DNA from: Acaryochloris sp. CCMEE 5410
GTDB lineage: Bacteria > Cyanobacteriota > Cyanobacteriia > Thermosynechococcales > Thermosynechococcaceae
DNA length: 64,000 bases
Assembly: GCF_000238775.2 (NCBI RefSeq)
Contig: NZ_AFEJ02000001.1
Span: 2,914,001 to 2,978,000, forward strand
Reading direction: 5' to 3'
Shown: positions 49,050-55,136 of the stretch, piece after piece
Layout: every line of letters begins with the position of its first letter
Numbering within the stretch: the stretch's first letter is position 1
The notes under the pieces: model-generated
Told to the model about the DNA's origin: nothing
Database searches by the model: none
The model's input: only the letters and a program-made list of their open reading frames with translations
Position numbers and translations under genes: made by a program

Positions 49050-51434
49050 TCAGAAATTCAGTGGTTCCCAACGACTACGGGCTTGGGAACCATCACCTCG
49101 ACGCGCCATCGCCAGTAGAAAGTCACTGGTTCCAATCAGCAAGGTGTAAATTAAATCCACAGTGAAGTCTTCTTCATCGACCGCACTAGGGGGTAAACGG
49201 GTCGCATTGGAGTCATCAAACACATCAAACCGATAAACCGGTCCCGACAGCGATCGACCTGATTCACTTTGAGCCTCTCTCAAACTGATATTCGTGGATT
49301 CAAGCTTTTGAAAGGAAAGGATATGGAGTGATGCTTTATTCCCAACAGATTCCAGTGTCCGATACATCCGTAGAGTCGCTAAAATTCTGCTGGTATACTC
49401 CTGAAAATCAATATCCTTGGTGGCCGCGATGGAAAAGCGTCCTTCCAAAGCATTAAAGGTATAGTCCGCATATTCATAGATGGGATAACGGACAGTTGTG
49501 CGGCTGCTATTTTCTGCAATCACCCGTGGCCCTCGCAGACCGTCCCAGGAAACACTGCCATCTGTGGCACCATTTTCTTGATCAGTGAGTGGGCAAACGG
49601 TTCCAGTGCCTTGCGGACTACTAGATTGATCCCCAAAGAAAGTTCGTTCAGTATCGGGAGCAACTGCTGGCCAGAACGTACTCAAGGCGGCACAGAGCTT
49701 TGCATCTTCGGGAAACGGACTTCCCAATCCATAGGCAGAGAGATGAGTCGCTCCTCCAGGAATGCGATCACCGCTCGTATCCCAGCCTGGAGCAAATACT
49801 CCGGCAGCAGCATCAGGGAGCGCTGCATGGCGTGCTGTCGTGGGTACAACGGGCTTAGGCTGGAGTAAATTGATATCTTGGAGTGCCGTCACAATCGCTG
49901 TAACCGTATTATCATCTTCACGAAATTCAGCATTAGCCAAGGTGATATTGGGGGCCGATCGCTCATCCGACAACGGAATAGGTCCAGCTCGCCAAAAATC
50001 CCAGTACCCTCCCAGAACAAGCTGACGGAGCCAAGGAGGTTGAGCCGATAATGTGCTTTGGTCTTGAATCTCACTCCACCATTCATAGACTTCCCGTTGG
50101 TCTACCGCTGGAAAGAAGTCCGGAGCCGCGATTAGAGAGTAAGCAGGTATAGAATCCAAGGAATCCAGTGCAGGCACAGTAGCCTTGATCCAGCCATCCC
50201 CCGTAAAGTCAGCAATATTGAGGGCTCGATATCCCCCTTGCGTGGCCTTGCCAACTACATCTGGACGATTGCCAAAGTAGACGGTTCTGCCATTGTCTAC
50301 CTCAAATCGGACATGAGCATATTCCGGCCAGGGACGGACAGGAGGCCCTTCAGGTTCATTAAAACTGAGGGTCGGAGAAAAAGCATCATAAAAAGCACCC
50401 TGCATGGGAGGAGACTGAAACGTCAGCGGTGCATTGTTAAAGCTAGCCCGTGCCACCAGCGGCTGAGGTTGTGGACTGAGAAGACAAGCCCCTCCTTGAA
50501 AAATAGCCAATCCTTCTATGAGCCCTTGTGCGTTGATAAAAGGCGATTGCTGCCTCTCAGCAGCACTAAATCCTGACGGGAAACCAGCATCTTCCATACG
50601 TTGATGCAATCGCTCCAACTTTTTATTCTCATGGTGGATGGAAAAGTCAATATCAATGGTTTCATCCTTCAGGCATTCATCGCCATTGAAGAGTTTATGA
50701 ACAGGTACCCAAAAGTCCCGAGTCTCGTCTCCAGGACGGGCCCGCGCTGGACCGAAGCGGCTTTCTTGAGCCCGAGAACGAACGGCGATCCAAGTACTGT
50801 AATAGCAAGGTAAAACTCGGATCATATTTTGGCTATCCCTCTCCCGAAATGGGATATAACCCCGGAGTTCTCCATCATAAATAGCGTTGGCTGTTCCGAC
50901 TCGAGCCGTTCCTGTACGGGAATGGCATAAATCTGCATAACGCTGATGGGGGGTTTCAGGTGCGGGGCGATACTCTGAGGCAAAAACAGCGACAGCCAGC
51001 TCTATGGTGCCAATATCAGTTGCTAAAAGTTCGGCTGCATGTTGACGGACGTCGGCCAGACTACGATTAGTCGTGACATAAATGTAGTTAGCAATGGTGT
51101 CGAGTTCCTCCAGCGTGGGAAACTCAGTAATAGCCTGGCTCAAAGCGCCTAACGGGGTGGACTGACCTGGTACCCGGCTGACGTTTGGTGAAGCAAAGGC
51201 ATGATACAGCAAGCTCGCCGCTGGATTTCCAGGCTCAATGCCTTTGGCCCGATTGGCAACAAAGTCTTCAAACCCTGGAATAGTTTTGTCGACATCGACT
51301 GCCTCGTTTAATGCACTGGCAAGGGCACTCTCACTCATGTGCTTGATGCTGAGACCATGCTTGAGCATGAGCGTCTGCCACCCTGCATCGGCAAGGCGAT
51401 CGCAGATTCGTTTCACATCTGTAATTAATGCCAT
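49050..51434 (-). CDS. Large orphan protein (794 aa), no recognised family
   Basis: A 794-residue soluble protein without signal peptide or membrane helix. The N-terminal part (GFEDFVANRAKGIEPGNPAASLLYHAFASPNVSRV near residue 55; EFPTLEELDTIANYIYVTTNRSLADV near 105) and the middle (RYADLCHSRTGTARVGTANAIYDGELRGYIPFR near 163; RDFWVPVHKLFNGDECL near 238) look conserved in style, with many aromatic residues. The later part (AYSLIAAPDFFPAVDQREVYEWW near 455) is rich in Pro, Phe and Trp. I cannot assign a function. The composition suggests a structured enzyme. Codon usage resembles neighbours. Confidence 0.8.
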   Translation of the reverse strand: MALITDVKRICDRLADAGWQTLMLKHGLSIKHMSESALASALNEAVDVDKTIPGFEDFVANRAKGIEPGNPAASLLYHAFASPNVSRVPGQSTPLGALSQAITEFPTLEELDTIANYIYVTTNRSLADVRQHAAELLATDIGTIELAVAVFASEYRPAPETPHQRYADLCHSRTGTARVGTANAIYDGELRGYIPFRERDSQNMIRVLPCYYSTWIAVRSRAQESRFGPARARPGDETRDFWVPVHKLFNGDECLKDETIDIDFSIHHENKKLERLHQRMEDAGFPSGFSAAERQQSPFINAQGLIEGLAIFQGGACLLSPQPQPLVARASFNNAPLTFQSPPMQGAFYDAFSPTLSFNEPEGPPVRPWPEYAHVRFEVDNGRTVYFGNRPDVVGKATQGGYRALNIADFTGDGWIKATVPALDSLDSIPAYSLIAAPDFFPAVDQREVYEWWSEIQDQSTLSAQPPWLRQLVLGGYWDFWRAGPIPLSDERSAPNITLANAEFREDDNTVTAIVTALQDINLLQPKPVVPTTARHAALPDAAAGVFAPGWDTSGDRIPGGATHLSAYGLGSPFPEDAKLCAALSTFWPAVAPDTERTFFGDQSSSPQGTGTVCPLTDQENGATDGSVSWDGLRGPRVIAENSSRTTVRYPIYEYADYTFNALEGRFSIAATKDIDFQEYTSRILATLRMYRTLESVGNKASLHILSFQKLESTNISLREAQSESGRSLSGPVYRFDVFDDSNATRLPPSAVDEEDFTVDLIYTLLIGTSDFLLAMARRGDGSQARSRWEPLNF

Positions 51435-52243: not shown

Positions 52244-53698
52244 ATGCCTTTACTTTCTCTGTCTAGAACAGCAAATTATTCCTATTCATTAGCAATAGGG
52301 ATGACCATCTTATGCAGTTGTAAGTTCATCTCGCCTCCCGTGCCTTCAGCAGCAGAACAGAGTCGTCTGACTGGACAGCAGGCCACGCAAGATTTTTGGC
52401 TTGACGATGAAGTTCGCCCATTACCTGGGAAGCTTGATCAAATTCCCATGTTCAATAGCAATAGTCCGGAATGGATTAAGCAACCTGGCATTCTACTCTC
52501 AACCTTTCCTTCATCAGGCAAAGCTACTCCTGAAGCTCATCTCAACTTCGGCTTTAAGAACAACTTCACGTTATTTAGTCATCATTTTTCGCACACTCCC
52601 ATTGATCTAAAAACGCTCTATTTAGGCATCATCGTTCATAACCCCAATACAGAAACGGTCACGTTAGCACTCAATACGGCTGCTAGTTACCAACTCGCTG
52701 AAGCCCCTTTCGACAAGAAGCCCTCCATTGCAGAAAATCCTGAGGGAACAGTTTTCTCCGGCCCCGGAGTCCGAACGGTGGATCAGATCCTTCGACAACT
52801 CAAGACCAATCAGCAACCTCAAAATCAAGCTGATTTCCCCAAAGTCCTGATCATTCCACCAGGGGAGTATCGTCTTCTATTGAACCACCCAATTCCTGTG
52901 AAGGGTCTTGAGAAGCCTATCAATGGACGATCCACCTTCATGCAACTCCACAGCAATCAAACCGTGAATCTTGCTGAACTTGCGATGTATGCGCCAACTA
53001 CAAAATCGGGAGATGAACGAAAGCCGACCCTTGAAGAGTGGAAAAAACTACTGCTGACCGGAGGGCTTGCAGGTCCAAGGGACAAAAGGCCAACGCCACC
53101 AGGTCAGGGAGGCGTTTTAATATACAGTCGAGTATCTGGAGTGCAGGCAGGTTCCAACTGGCAAGCCCTATTGACGGATCCAGGATCAAAACACTTATCT
53201 ATTCCTGCTTCAGGCAAAGGCATTTCCTATGGAATTAGCACCTTGAGAGCCGGTCGTTTAGGTACAGCACAGACTCAGGCTGCTAAACTCCTAGCCCGAT
53301 ACACTGATACAGCTTACGAAGCTCATGGGAATTATTGTGTGTACTACGATTTATCTTTGCCATTACATAACCCCACGTCTAGCCCCAAACAGGTGACACT
53401 GACCCTTGCAACGCCCATCAAGGTAGACAAACTCAATCCAAAAGGATTGCAGTTTACAATCCCGCCTCGCACACACCCCTATTTCCGAGGAACAGTTAGG
53501 TTGAGAATATCTGAGGACGATGGCGCTATCACGACTCAGTACGTTCATCTATGGCAAAGAACGGGAGAGCTGACCAAGCCAATGAGTACCCTAACTATCC
53601 CTCCAAAGACCACTAAAACGGTTTCAGTTGATTTCCTCTATCCACCTGACTCAACACCTCCACAAATCCTGAGGATTGCAACATCACCTGTTAAATAA
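52244..53698 (+). CDS. DUF3370 putative lipoprotein
   Basis: A 484-residue exported protein of the cyanobacterial DUF3370 family. The N-terminal signal sequence ends in L-C-S-C near residue 25-28, a plausible lipobox. Family stretches include DDEVRPLPGKLDQIPMFNSNSPEWIKQPGILLSTF near residue 55, GRLGTAQTQAAKLLARYTDTAYEAHGNYCVYYDLSLPL near 345, and the IPPRTHPYFRGTVRLR beta-rich part. Such proteins form a large beta-sandwich outside the cytoplasm; function not known. Single gene. Confidence 0.87.
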   Translation: MPLLSLSRTANYSYSLAIGMTILCSCKFISPPVPSAAEQSRLTGQQATQDFWLDDEVRPLPGKLDQIPMFNSNSPEWIKQPGILLSTFPSSGKATPEAHLNFGFKNNFTLFSHHFSHTPIDLKTLYLGIIVHNPNTETVTLALNTAASYQLAEAPFDKKPSIAENPEGTVFSGPGVRTVDQILRQLKTNQQPQNQADFPKVLIIPPGEYRLLLNHPIPVKGLEKPINGRSTFMQLHSNQTVNLAELAMYAPTTKSGDERKPTLEEWKKLLLTGGLAGPRDKRPTPPGQGGVLIYSRVSGVQAGSNWQALLTDPGSKHLSIPASGKGISYGISTLRAGRLGTAQTQAAKLLARYTDTAYEAHGNYCVYYDLSLPLHNPTSSPKQVTLTLATPIKVDKLNPKGLQFTIPPRTHPYFRGTVRLRISEDDGAITTQYVHLWQRTGELTKPMSTLTIPPKTTKTVSVDFLYPPDSTPPQILRIATSPVK

Positions 53699-53845
53699 GA
53701 CCGCATAAAAAGTGCAAGGGGTATGCGCTTTCTGCGAATTGCTAGCTGCAAACCCTCGTGTTTCGGCCACGGCAATTCAAACTATAGGATGTAAAGGCTA
53801 TGACGGATTTGCGATCGCACAACTGACCCACGAATATTCAGACCA

Positions 53846-54271
53846 ATGAACGAGATAGAAGCCTTTGCCTTTGCTTTGAATCAGTTAGATCCAGAGTCCT
53901 ATTCCTTCGACTTAGAGATTGACCAGCTACTAGACACAACAGACTCAAAGATATATCCAGATCTATATCGGCCTATTTTTGACTACTTTGTTCAACATGC
54001 AACGTCATCAGTGGGTGGACCAGGCGCATTAGTCCATCACATCGAAACGTATTATCCCAACTATCTAGATACTCTCAAATACGATTTGGCCCAACGACCG
54101 TCTTGTACTACCGCCTTATTAGCCAATCGTATCCTTAACTCTAAGATCTCAGCACAAGAACGAAGCGAGTGGCTTGGACTCCTATCAGCAATCTGCAGCA
54201 ATCCATTTGCAGCCCCTGAAATTCGAGCTGATGCAGAAGAGTATCTAGAGTATCAGCGACAAAAAGACTAG
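53846..54271 (+). CDS. Hypothetical protein upstream of the HicA-like pair
   Basis: A 141-residue acidic soluble protein, mostly helical (EIEAFAFALNQLDPESYSFDLEIDQLLDTTD at the start; QERSEWLGLLSAICSNPFAAPEIRADAEEYLEYQRQKD at the end). I do not recognise it; the helical repeat-like character resembles immunity-type proteins. It lies 49 bases before the HicA-like gene on the same strand, so it may belong to that unit. Confidence 0.65.
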   Translation: MNEIEAFAFALNQLDPESYSFDLEIDQLLDTTDSKIYPDLYRPIFDYFVQHATSSVGGPGALVHHIETYYPNYLDTLKYDLAQRPSCTTALLANRILNSKISAQERSEWLGLLSAICSNPFAAPEIRADAEEYLEYQRQKD

Positions 54272-54320
54272 TTGTCACCTGACAACAAGACGCTATACGC
54301 TGGAGCCATAGAGCGTTGTT

Positions 54321-54584
54321 ATGGCAAGACGATCACATCCCAAACCGGAGATTGAAGCAGCTCCACAATACGCTGAGCAAAATCAGTGGCGGATTGAAGT
54401 GGGTGGGTCCCATGCTTGGGGGAAAATGTACTGCCCCTACAACGATAAAGACTGTAGATGCGGCACTGCCAGTATTTGGAGTACTCCCAAAAACCCAGGG
54501 AATCATACTAAACAGATCCAGCGCATTGTTGATAACGGTAGTCGGCACAACCCATTGAGTAAACCTAGTCATGCAGAGGAATAA
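54321..54584 (+). CDS. HicA-like small protein with Cys cluster
   Basis: An 87-residue basic protein. The stretch QNQWRIEVGGSHAWGKMYCPYND at residues 21-42 recalls the double-stranded-RNA-binding fold of HicA toxins, whose catalytic His lies in a G-S-H motif (here H31). It adds C38, C45 and C47, a possible metal site, then SIWSTPKNPGNHTKQIQRIVDN. HicA toxins are mRNA interferases; whether this one cleaves RNA is inference. The next gene starts 3 bases after its stop, with the ribosome binding site GAGGAATAA overlapping the stop, so translation is coupled. Confidence 0.7.
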   Translation: MARRSHPKPEIEAAPQYAEQNQWRIEVGGSHAWGKMYCPYNDKDCRCGTASIWSTPKNPGNHTKQIQRIVDNGSRHNPLSKPSHAEE

Positions 54585-54587
54585 GTC

Positions 54588-55136
54588 ATGAATGCATATG
54601 ACTTTACGCTGAAATTTGCACTGCAGCCCCCAAATGCTGAAACCAAAACTGTTCAACTCGATCCCAATCATTATGTTGAGCAACTTTACGAAAGTGGTTG
54701 TGATGATGCCTTAGTCGGTGTCGGTAAACAAGGATTGATTTCACTCAACTTTAATCGTGAAGCACAATCTGCCTACGCTGCCATTGCGAGTGCAATCTCA
54801 GATGTCAAACAAGCCATCCCTACCGCAAAACTCATCGAAGCAAGCCCTGATTTTGTGGGACTTACAGATGTGGCTAAGGTTTTAGGCTGCACTCGACAAA
54901 ATATGCGGAATCTCATTATCAATGGTGTCCCCCAGTCTCCACCTCCGATCTATGAGGGAACGCCTTCACTGTGGCACTTAGCAGACCTATTATTTTGGTT
55001 ACAGACGGATAAAACCTATGAGATTGATGATGTTTTACTGGAAACAGCCCAAATGACGATGAAATTGAATGCTGCTAAGAGTTGGCAAAAAGTCGGGGCA
55101 GAGCTGCAAGAAGATATCAAGTATTTAGTGGCTTAG
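54588..55136 (+). CDS. HTH DNA-binding partner of the HicA-like gene
   Basis: A 182-residue protein. The N-terminal half (LDPNHYVEQLYESGCDDALVGVGKQGLISLNFNREAQSAYAAIASAISDVKQAIPTAKLIEAS) is a conserved domain of unknown role. The middle (FVGLTDVAKVLGCTRQNMRNLIINGV...GTPSLWHLADLLFWLQ) is a MerR/excisionase-like winged helix-turn-helix. The order, small toxin-like gene then larger DNA-binding protein, resembles a toxin-antitoxin pair in which the antitoxin also represses the operon. I know similar pairs in other bacteria, but no characterised system. Confidence 0.75.
   Translation: MNAYDFTLKFALQPPNAETKTVQLDPNHYVEQLYESGCDDALVGVGKQGLISLNFNREAQSAYAAIASAISDVKQAIPTAKLIEASPDFVGLTDVAKVLGCTRQNMRNLIINGVPQSPPPIYEGTPSLWHLADLLFWLQTDKTYEIDDVLLETAQMTMKLNAAKSWQKVGAELQEDIKYLVA

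What the first reader, a model, noticed from the sequence alone, without database searches (positions are those of the whole stretch)
54321..55136. HicA-like protein coupled to a DNA-binding partner: possible new toxin-antitoxin type
An 87-residue basic protein with G-G-S-H and a Cys cluster is followed 3 bases later by a 182-residue HTH protein, with the ribosome binding site at the stop of the first. Usual HicB antitoxins are different from this partner, and the Cys cluster is absent from HicA. The pair could be a toxin-antitoxin, RNA-control or phage-defence unit. A helical small gene at 53846 may be part of it.
Basis: partly seen in the sequence, partly recalled or inferred. Interest (0 to 1): 0.65.

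Follow-up and report, generated by a model that had tools for sequence, protein, structure and literature searches.

The report
HicA-like toxin-antitoxin pair, toxin decaying
Two adjacent cyanobacterial genes belong to a widespread, little-studied family that looks like a self-regulating toxin-antitoxin switch, but in this genome the toxin gene carries changes suggesting that it is wearing out while the antidote gene is kept.

Summary
In detail: gene A (54321-54584, 87 aa) and gene B (54588-55136, 182 aa) are coupled. They match PADLOC's candidate PDC-M06A/B, so the pair is not unknown. B follows A in 80 of 80 genome loci kept by one scan; in 292 genomes of the phylum all 17 with A also have B. 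A is predicted to have HicA's element order, with G-S-H in the HicA position; B is predicted as a ferredoxin-like domain plus an AlpA/excisionase-like winged helix, without a HicB match. A palindrome, usually over the -35 box, precedes A in 91 of 108 upstream regions, here at 54271-54286: a likely operator. Apart from two divergent viral loci, intact A was not seen without B's N-terminal domain, while several genomes keep B after losing A. [quoted passage not shown] The window's own A lost two family-wide cysteines and is probably weakened or dead. The upstream gene at 53846 is not part of it. Toxicity, RNA cleavage and defence are untested.

The parts
54271..54286 (.). Palindrome GTTGTCA-CC-TGACAAC, proposed operator of B; begins 50 bases before the A start
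   Evidence: only match within 2 mismatches in the 64-kb window (0.21 expected; 19 of 100 shuffles had at least one); the inner 14-mer occurs at 2 places in the 8.09-Mb genome; core within 2 mismatches in 91 of 108 family upstream regions, duplicates included
54321..54584 (+). Gene A: HicA-like, PDC-M06A family, 87 aa; proposed toxin, probably weakened here
54402..54413 (+). GGSH (residues 28-31), in the predicted beta1-beta2 loop, where HicA has its essential Gly and His
   Evidence: His in 82 of 85 unique family members; secondary structure of models of two relatives; HicA G22/H24 from PMC3969222 passages
54432..54461 (+). Cys38, Cys45, Cys47: what remains of the family's Cys site; three residues including a conserved Cys are missing just downstream, and the conserved C-terminal Cys is Gly (54537-54539)
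54575..54580 (+). Shine-Dalgarno-like AGAGGA for B, overlapping the end of A (translational coupling)
   Evidence: sequence
54588..55136 (+). Gene B: PDC-M06B family, 182 aa; proposed antitoxin and autorepressor
54588..54845 (+). B N-terminal domain, predicted beta-alpha-beta-beta-alpha-beta (ferredoxin-like); proposed A-neutralising domain
   Evidence: model of relative L134; coordinates mapped
54861..55010 (+). B winged-helix DNA-binding region, AlpA/excisionase-like
   Evidence: coordinates mapped

Best explanation
A and B are a type II toxin-antitoxin operon of the PDC-M06 family. A is a HicA-fold protein that probably cleaves or binds RNA through the G-S-H loop, with a Cys/His site (perhaps zinc) holding the fold. 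B's N-terminal ferredoxin-like domain binds and neutralises A; its AlpA/excisionase-like winged helix binds the palindrome over the -35 box and represses the operon, so loss of B would release A. In this genome, and in the two same-genus relatives where the locus was found, A is decaying while B is retained. Shown: linkage, coupling, conserved palindrome, residue conservation, pattern of gene loss. Predicted: folds. Inferred: toxicity, RNA cleavage, neutralisation, repression, metal binding, loss of activity of the window copy.
For: B lies directly downstream of A in 80 of 80 kept genome loci and 10 of 12 viral loci; of these 90 pairs 74 are 0-10 nt apart, 5 overlap and 11 are further apart. 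One of the 5 is a natural A-B fusion, L134. All 17 A-bearing of 292 genomes of the phylum have B; 5 more have B only. A palindromic core precedes A in 91 of 108 upstream regions (69 exact), with TTGACA as second half-site in 86 of 91. Over 149 A hits with duplicates: 135 full A with full B, 6 (4 distinct loci) full A with B cut after its N-terminal domain, 6 partial A, 2 full A without a B hit (the fusion L134, and the divergent L158). A lost or truncated with B intact: G001, G013, G176 and a Janthinobacterium plasmid. AF2 fusion model pLDDT 86.2, pTM 0.83. HicA chains of 6g26 are Foldseek's top two for A alone; RdfS excisionase chains match B's C-terminal part with probability 1.00 and 0.99, at E 0.08 and 0.18. 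G22 and H24 of Burkholderia HicA are needed for its toxicity (PMC3969222 passages).
Against: I found no toxicity, binding or cleavage data for this family. The window A has no Pfam or NCBIfam hit at E<=5 and the family profile aligns only weakly with the genome's own HicAs (hhalign probability 9.5%, E 0.0034, 24 columns). No Foldseek hit of either model reaches E 0.001, and HicA chains reach VIA Z of only 3.4-4.4, tied with unrelated transaminase domains. Two divergent viral loci (L157, L158) have A without a recognisable B. Shi of ICEclc is HicA-derived yet not toxic alone (PMC6812849 passages). Selection on A and B is similar between window and G002 (dN/dS 0.21 and 0.16 by NG86, 0.23 and 0.24 by YN00), so decay of A is read from specific changes, not from an overall rate. 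The window's palindrome has CTGACA rather than TTGACA and no -10-like hexamer 17 nt on. Four loci keep A with B's winged helix lost, so DNA binding is not always kept.
Confidence: 0.7

Rival explanations
1. Dedicated phage-defence module: A is released when a phage disables B or the operon, causing abortive infection.
For: Listed in PADLOC-DB as PDC-M06, PDC standing for phage defence candidate (PMC11514479 passages); carried by SSU5-like phage-plasmids and viral contigs; some loci lie near phage integrase and AlpA genes (Pfam Phage_integrase 9, AlpA 6 of 128 neighbouring ORFs).
Against: No recurring defence partner: of 128 neighbouring ORFs no PADLOC family hits more than 2 (119 families hit at 1e-8, among them single CARF/Csx, methyltransferase and PDC-S hits; no control set was run). 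The pair also sits on plasmids beside transfer or partition genes, which fits element stabilisation equally well. PDC systems are described as largely unvalidated (PMC12988326 passages).
Confidence: 0.25
2. Not toxic: A is a HicA-derived adaptor or co-regulator and B an AlpA-like regulator of excision or of mobile-element genes.
For: Shi of ICEclc is a HicA-like protein that is harmless alone and acts with ParA (PMC6812849 passages). B resembles PHROG 2620 'excisionase and transcriptional regulator' (E 5.3e-19) and RdfS.
Against: The one-sided loss (A lost with B kept; intact A without B's N-terminal domain only in two divergent viral loci) is not expected of a harmless adaptor. The window pair is not beside an integrase, and integrase domains were found in 9 of 128 neighbouring ORFs. 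The palindrome core has one copy between genes in this genome, the other being inside a reading frame.
Confidence: 0.15
3. An ordinary HicAB pair, Gerdes Class 3 (hicA then hicB with a C-terminal HTH).
For: Same gene order and same domain order (neutralising domain, then HTH); G-S-H and the proline loop at HicA positions. Cyrano's annotators called its pair HicA/HicB.
Against: A and B have no HicA/HicB Pfam match, while the same genome has 9 PF07927 hits over the cut-off and 4 PF15919 hits (3 over the cut-off) elsewhere. B's N-terminal domain is predicted beta-alpha-beta-beta-alpha-beta and its profile does not align with HicB (probability 0.7%, only three HicB sequences). A has conserved Cys residues that are not in the genome's HicAs.
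Confidence: 0.1
4. The window copy is fully active: the missing cysteines are dispensable.
For: The reading frame is open, dN/dS of A against G002 is 0.21, and the G-S-H motif is intact.
Against: The window alone of 85 unique A proteins lacks Cys50 or its His substitute, and it alone lacks Cys75; it has Pro in helix 1 where the other 84 have Leu, Ile, Val or Met. The two same-genus copies found are also damaged: His to Tyr in G002, and in G001 only the last ~20 bases of A remain before a transposase-like sequence.
Confidence: 0.25

Closest known systems
PADLOC-DB PDC-M06 (PDC-M06A / PDC-M06B), phage defence candidate
   Same: Both proteins match the family models strongly and in the right order.
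   Different: The PADLOC rows give no mechanism; no paper holding 'PDC-M06' was found in the PMC library. The window copy lacks two family cysteines.
HicAB type II toxin-antitoxin (Pfam PF07927 / PF15919), nearest Gerdes Class 3
   Same: Toxin-first order, predicted HicA element order, G-S-H and proline loop in the same places, partner ending in an HTH-type DNA-binding region.
   Different: No Pfam match; Cys site in A; antitoxin N-terminal domain predicted ferredoxin-like rather than the HicB partial RNase H fold; winged helix of AlpA/excisionase kind. None of the classes in the parts of PMC10865869 that I read (abstract, Results parts 1-2 of 3) describes such a partner; its Table S1 was not seen.
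SSU5 gp055/gp054 and Cyrano CYRAN_51/CYRAN_50 (phage-plasmids)
   Same: Same family by PADLOC models; Cyrano's are named HicA toxin protein and putative antitoxin HicB and stand in a table of expressed prophage morons (PMC9928086 passages).
   Different: Shorter A without Cys44/46, B of 187-192 aa, another palindrome (GTTGAC...GTCAAC type). No functional test in the passages seen.
Shi of ICEclc
   Same: HicA-derived small protein on a mobile element whose operon starts with alpA.
   Different: Works with ParA, not toxic alone (PMC6812849 passages). Not compared by sequence here.
Adephagia gp91/gp90
   Same: Phage HicA-like toxin whose H31 and G28 are needed for toxicity (PMC11373665 passages).
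   Different: Described there as Class 2 HicAB, antitoxin first, antitoxin of 65 residues. Not compared by sequence here.

Membership tests
PDC-M06 (PADLOC) | Both components match the family models | tested here: met
   A PDLC04385 E 2.5e-38, B PDLC04388 E 4.5e-67
PDC-M06 (PADLOC) | Anti-phage activity | not testable with these tools
   needs phage challenge
HicAB | Toxin matches PF07927 above its cut-off | tested here: not met
   window A had 0 Pfam families at E<=5; it is not among the 9 PF07927 hits of its own genome
[quoted passage not shown]
   same element order in both AF2 models of relatives and HicA chains top Foldseek (E 0.38), but VIA Z only up to 4.4, tied with unrelated chains
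HicAB | Gly/Ser/His motif in the beta1-beta2 loop | tested here: met
   present in the window; His in 82 of 85 unique A proteins, placed between predicted beta1 and beta2; HicA motif from PMC3969222 passages
HicAB | Antitoxin matches HicB Pfam models | tested here: not met
   B's only Pfam row at E<=5 is SgrR_N, below its cut-off; PF15919 finds 4 other places in the genome, not B
HicAB | Antitoxin N-terminal domain is a partial RNase H fold | tested here: inconclusive
   model is beta-alpha-beta-beta-alpha-beta with ferredoxin-like best rows, Z 7.8; hhalign to three HicBs probability 0.7%; absence from a list does not exclude a family
HicAB | Toxin cleaves mRNA/tmRNA and arrests growth | not testable with these tools
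   needs expression
Type II toxin-antitoxin module | Two small, tightly linked, co-inherited genes | tested here: met
   80 of 80 and 10 of 12 loci; 17 of 17 A genomes have B
Type II toxin-antitoxin module | Antitoxin protein binds and neutralises the toxin | not testable with these tools
   only indirect: natural fusion L134, pTM 0.83 of its model, one-sided loss
Type II toxin-antitoxin module | Autoregulation through an operator at the operon promoter | tested here: inconclusive
   conserved palindrome in 91 of 108 upstream regions, over TTGACA in 86 of the 91; binding not shown

The most novel reading that the evidence does not exclude
The palindrome before A is more than a protein operator. 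Its core is fixed, but the outer arms are nearly random in sequence and still largely complementary, changing in step even between some loci whose B proteins are 95-100% identical. So the operon may be controlled through a DNA cruciform or RNA hairpin that B, or A with its double-stranded-RNA-binding type of fold, recognises as a shape: a structure-sensing toxin-antitoxin switch.
Probability: 0.15. Interest if true: 0.7.

Novelty: new variant of a known kind. Interest (0 to 1): 0.45.

Why it matters
If A is a HicA-type RNase held by a ferredoxin-like/AlpA-like antitoxin, it would show that HicA toxins were paired with an unrelated antitoxin, and it gives a clear test: one palindrome, one histidine, one neutralising domain. 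The covarying palindrome arms raise a separate testable question about hairpin-forming operators.

Tried and rejected
Canonical HicAB by sequence: rejected, no Pfam match, weak profile alignments. Solved relatives by sequence: the A profile gave only thioredoxin reductases at E 0.11-0.12; the B profile gave 14 weak rows up to E 1.3, among them AlpA (8c3t, E 0.13) and terminase small subunits. HicB does not appear in the fold lists of the fusion model; this does not exclude it. ORF 53846-54271 as part of the unit: rejected because G002 carries an internal deletion of it with A and B in place; it has no family above cut-off. Terminator reading of the palindrome: no T-run seen after the arms (my reading; no terminator scan was run). 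Coevolution with B specificity as the cause of arm covariation: unlikely, because arms covary between some near-identical B proteins; template-switch repair of palindromes stays possible. Defence-island context: no recurring PADLOC family among 128 neighbouring ORFs, taken from 201 extracted (mostly the nearest two per side; 36 of 37 B clusters), no control set run. Gammaproteobacterial co-occurrence sampling failed, so B-without-A was counted only in the window's phylum and in a second viral scan: 6 of 7 B loci there have A upstream; the seventh, L176, is an N-terminal-domain-only relative beside a release-factor gene. The 80 genome loci are the best-scoring of 573, so they favour close relatives. 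Of the 6 papers listed for HicA plus AlpA only PMC6812849 was opened; of the listings only PMC10865869, PMC3969222 and PMC11373665 were opened.

Full report
What is there. Two genes on the + strand, A (54321-54584, 87 aa) and B (54588-55136, 182 aa), are separated by 3 bases, with an AGAGGA stretch at 54575-54580 inside the end of A. The genome is an 8.09-Mb assembly; the window is bases 2914001-2978000 of its contig C1, and B and A each gave one match in it. It is cyanobacterial: genomes of its class in the sample share contigs of equal length with named cyanobacterial records (for example G085:C136 and L113, 9119 bases; my comparison). Pfam and NCBIfam give nothing above cut-off for A or B. 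PADLOC-DB 2.0.0 names both: PDC-M06A (E 2.5e-38) and PDC-M06B (E 4.5e-67). PHROGs gives phrog_5923 for A and phrog_2620, 'excisionase and transcriptional regulator', for B. So the pair has already been flagged as a defence candidate (PDC = phage defence candidate, PMC11514479 passages); no paper with 'PDC-M06' was found, and a 2026 paper describes PDC systems as largely unvalidated (PMC12988326 passages).

Distribution. In a sample of 292 genomes of the phylum A is found in 17 and B in 22; all 17 with A also have B. Among close relatives, DNA of the locus was found in 2 of 6 same-genus genomes (G001, G002); the other four, 82-92% complete, gave no match. All 80 have B just downstream, as have 10 of 12 viral loci. 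Of these 90 pairs 74 have a 0-10 nt gap, 5 overlap and 11 are further apart. L134 (Rugamonas brunnea) is one continuous 265-aa A-B protein. SSU5-like phage-plasmids carry the pair, annotated in Cyrano as 'HicA toxin protein' and 'putative antitoxin HicB'. The two viral loci without a B match, L157 and L158, have a divergent A without a G-S-H motif and next to it a ~120-aa ORF that I read as a possible N-terminal-domain-only partner; sequence support for that partner is weak (no family above cut-off).

Protein A. Among 85 unique A proteins, Trp22 and Pro58 are in all, His30 in 82, Cys37 in 84, Cys75 in 84, Cys50 in 79 with His in 5, Cys44 in 74, Cys46 in 73 (Gloeothece numbering). Cys/His exchange at position 50 suggests a metal site; this is inference, as no coordinates were available. 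AF2 of a cyanobacterial A (L068, 64-row alignment) has pLDDT 84.6 and pTM 0.75, with elements helix-strand-strand-strand-helix and a short last helix. GSH lies in the first hairpin loop and STP before the second long helix. Passages of PMC3969222 place HicA's essential Gly22 and His24 in the beta1-beta2 loop and conserved prolines in the beta3-alpha2 loop. Foldseek's two best PDB hits are HicA chains of 6g26 (E 0.38 and 0.43, probability 0.80, TM 0.62-0.63 by target); none reaches E 0.001. VIA lists 5yrz, 1whz, 6g26, 6hpb and 4c26 at Z 4.4-3.4, but unrelated transaminase domains score the same. A HicA relationship is therefore likely, not proved.

Protein B. The fusion L134, folded with 18 paired rows, has pLDDT 86.2 and pTM 0.83. 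B's N-terminal part is strand-helix-strand-strand-helix-strand; best VIA rows are ferredoxin-like domains, including Lrp/AsnC and ACT domains, Z up to 7.8 over about 70-80 residues, within the range of common arrangements. The C-terminal part matches the excisionase RdfS (8dgl, probability 1.00 and 0.99, E 0.08 and 0.18), with sub-threshold AlpA hits. The N-domain profile does not align with HicBs of the same genome (probability 0.7%, three HicB sequences). The relative placing of A and B in the fusion model cannot be read from the output; pTM 0.83 only suggests that it is defined.

The palindrome. From 50 bases before A stands GTTGTCACCTGACAAC (54271-54286), the only match within 2 mismatches in the window (0.21 expected; 19 of 100 shuffles had at least one). 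The inner pattern TTGTCANNTGACAA has one other place in the genome, inside a reading frame; about 0.5 is expected by chance (my arithmetic). What makes it convincing is conservation: the core occurs within 2 mismatches in 91 of 108 family upstream regions (69 exact; duplicates included, 78 unique 48-base windows), 85 of the 91 with the core beginning 60 to 40 bases before A. The second half-site is TTGACA in 86 of 91; the commonest hexamer 17 nt later is CATACT, 37 of 91. So it usually overlaps a -35 box: a plain site for autorepression. The window and G002 have CTGACA instead and no -10-like hexamer at 17 nt. Two of the 91 (ATGTCA half-site, L002 and L010) and several of the 17 without the core carry another palindrome, GTTGAC...GTCAAC; the 17 are 11 viral loci, one phage, four plasmids and one genome locus.

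An unexplained feature. Outside the core, pairs 9-13 from the centre have entropies of 1.6-2.0 bits per side yet are complementary in 65.4% of cells, against 17-27% when one side is slid by 1-3 bases, and in 47-76% per pair against 27-35% when arms are dealt between loci (78 unique windows). Of 137 locus pairs with B at least 90% identical (not independent), 99 differ by one or more compensatory changes at pairs 8-15; single-sided changes are as many (216 against 198 compensatory). A fixed DNA-binding specificity does not explain this. A cruciform or hairpin, or template-switch repair of palindromes, would.

Loss pattern. Over 149 A hits (duplicates included): 135 full A with full B; 6 full A with B ending after its N-terminal domain (4 distinct: G156, a second G217 locus, L143, L148); 6 partial A; 2 full A without a B hit, namely L134 (the fusion) and L158 (divergent). 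Of the partial ones, L153 and L157 are better read as divergent or split alignments, and in G284 both genes are cut. In the other direction B is intact while A is lost or cut in G001 (only the last ~20 bases of A remain before a transposase-like sequence, DDE_3 below cut-off, that runs to the contig end), G013, G176 (an A-like frame that stops after 13 codons, read) and a Janthinobacterium plasmid. The other four B-only genomes hold B fragments only. This asymmetry is what a toxin with its antitoxin would show; the numbers are small.

The window's own copy. Of 85 unique A proteins the window alone has a gap at Cys50 (an in-frame loss of three residues) and alone has Gly at Cys75 and Pro at position 14. 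G002 has Tyr for the GSH His but keeps the cysteines, and G001 has A interrupted; B is intact in both, and the thiD-like kinase gene follows in all three, split into two frames in G002. Overall dN/dS does not differ much (window against G002: A 0.21, B 0.16 by NG86; 0.23 and 0.24 by YN00), so the damage would be recent. I judge the window A to be weakened or inactive; an assay is needed.

The neighbour at 53846. G002 keeps the start and the end of this ORF with its middle deleted, directly before the intact A-B region. The ORF has no family above cut-off. It is not part of the unit.

Function. [quoted passage not shown] Whether it protects against phages, stabilises mobile elements or both is open. 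Rivals are a HicA-derived non-toxic adaptor, for which Shi of ICEclc is a precedent (PMC6812849, passages), and a plain Class 3 HicAB. Compared with PMC10865869 (abstract and Results parts 1-2 of 3 read; its Table S1 not seen), the order fits Class 3 but the partner domain and the Cys site do not.

Noticed in passing
upstream of A in 78 unique family windows (for example L082, L084, L107): The operator palindrome has variable outer arms that stay complementary, up to 19 contiguous pairs, suggesting a hairpin/cruciform or template-switch repair.
   Followed up: partly
upstream of A in proteobacterial loci (for example L072 5936-5985): The -10-like CATACT is followed almost at once by GGAG and the A start, so the A message may be nearly leaderless, unlike B's coupled start.
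   Followed up: no
L157 4929-5572 and L158 4962-5542: Divergent A relatives without a G-S-H motif, next to ~120-aa ORFs that may be N-terminal-domain-only partners; L158's A weakly matches PADLOC 'HicA-like' (E 0.0082).
   Followed up: partly
L176 2731-3966: A viral contig codes a B N-terminal-like domain at the end of a longer ORF, followed by a release-factor homologue (RF-1 and PCRF domains).
   Followed up: no
window 53709-53851: Matches (87%) the 3' end of a methyltransferase-like ORF (my reading of the translation) that is intact upstream of A-B in same-genus G002 (L015 2103-2765); in the window a DUF3370 gene (52244-53698) lies before this remnant.
   Followed up: partly
window 49050-51434, minus strand: A 794-aa ORF without any Pfam, NCBIfam or PADLOC match at E<=5.
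   Followed up: no
G000 (own genome): Nine HicA (PF07927) hits over the cut-off elsewhere in the genome, three of them close to PF15919 HicB hits.
   Followed up: no
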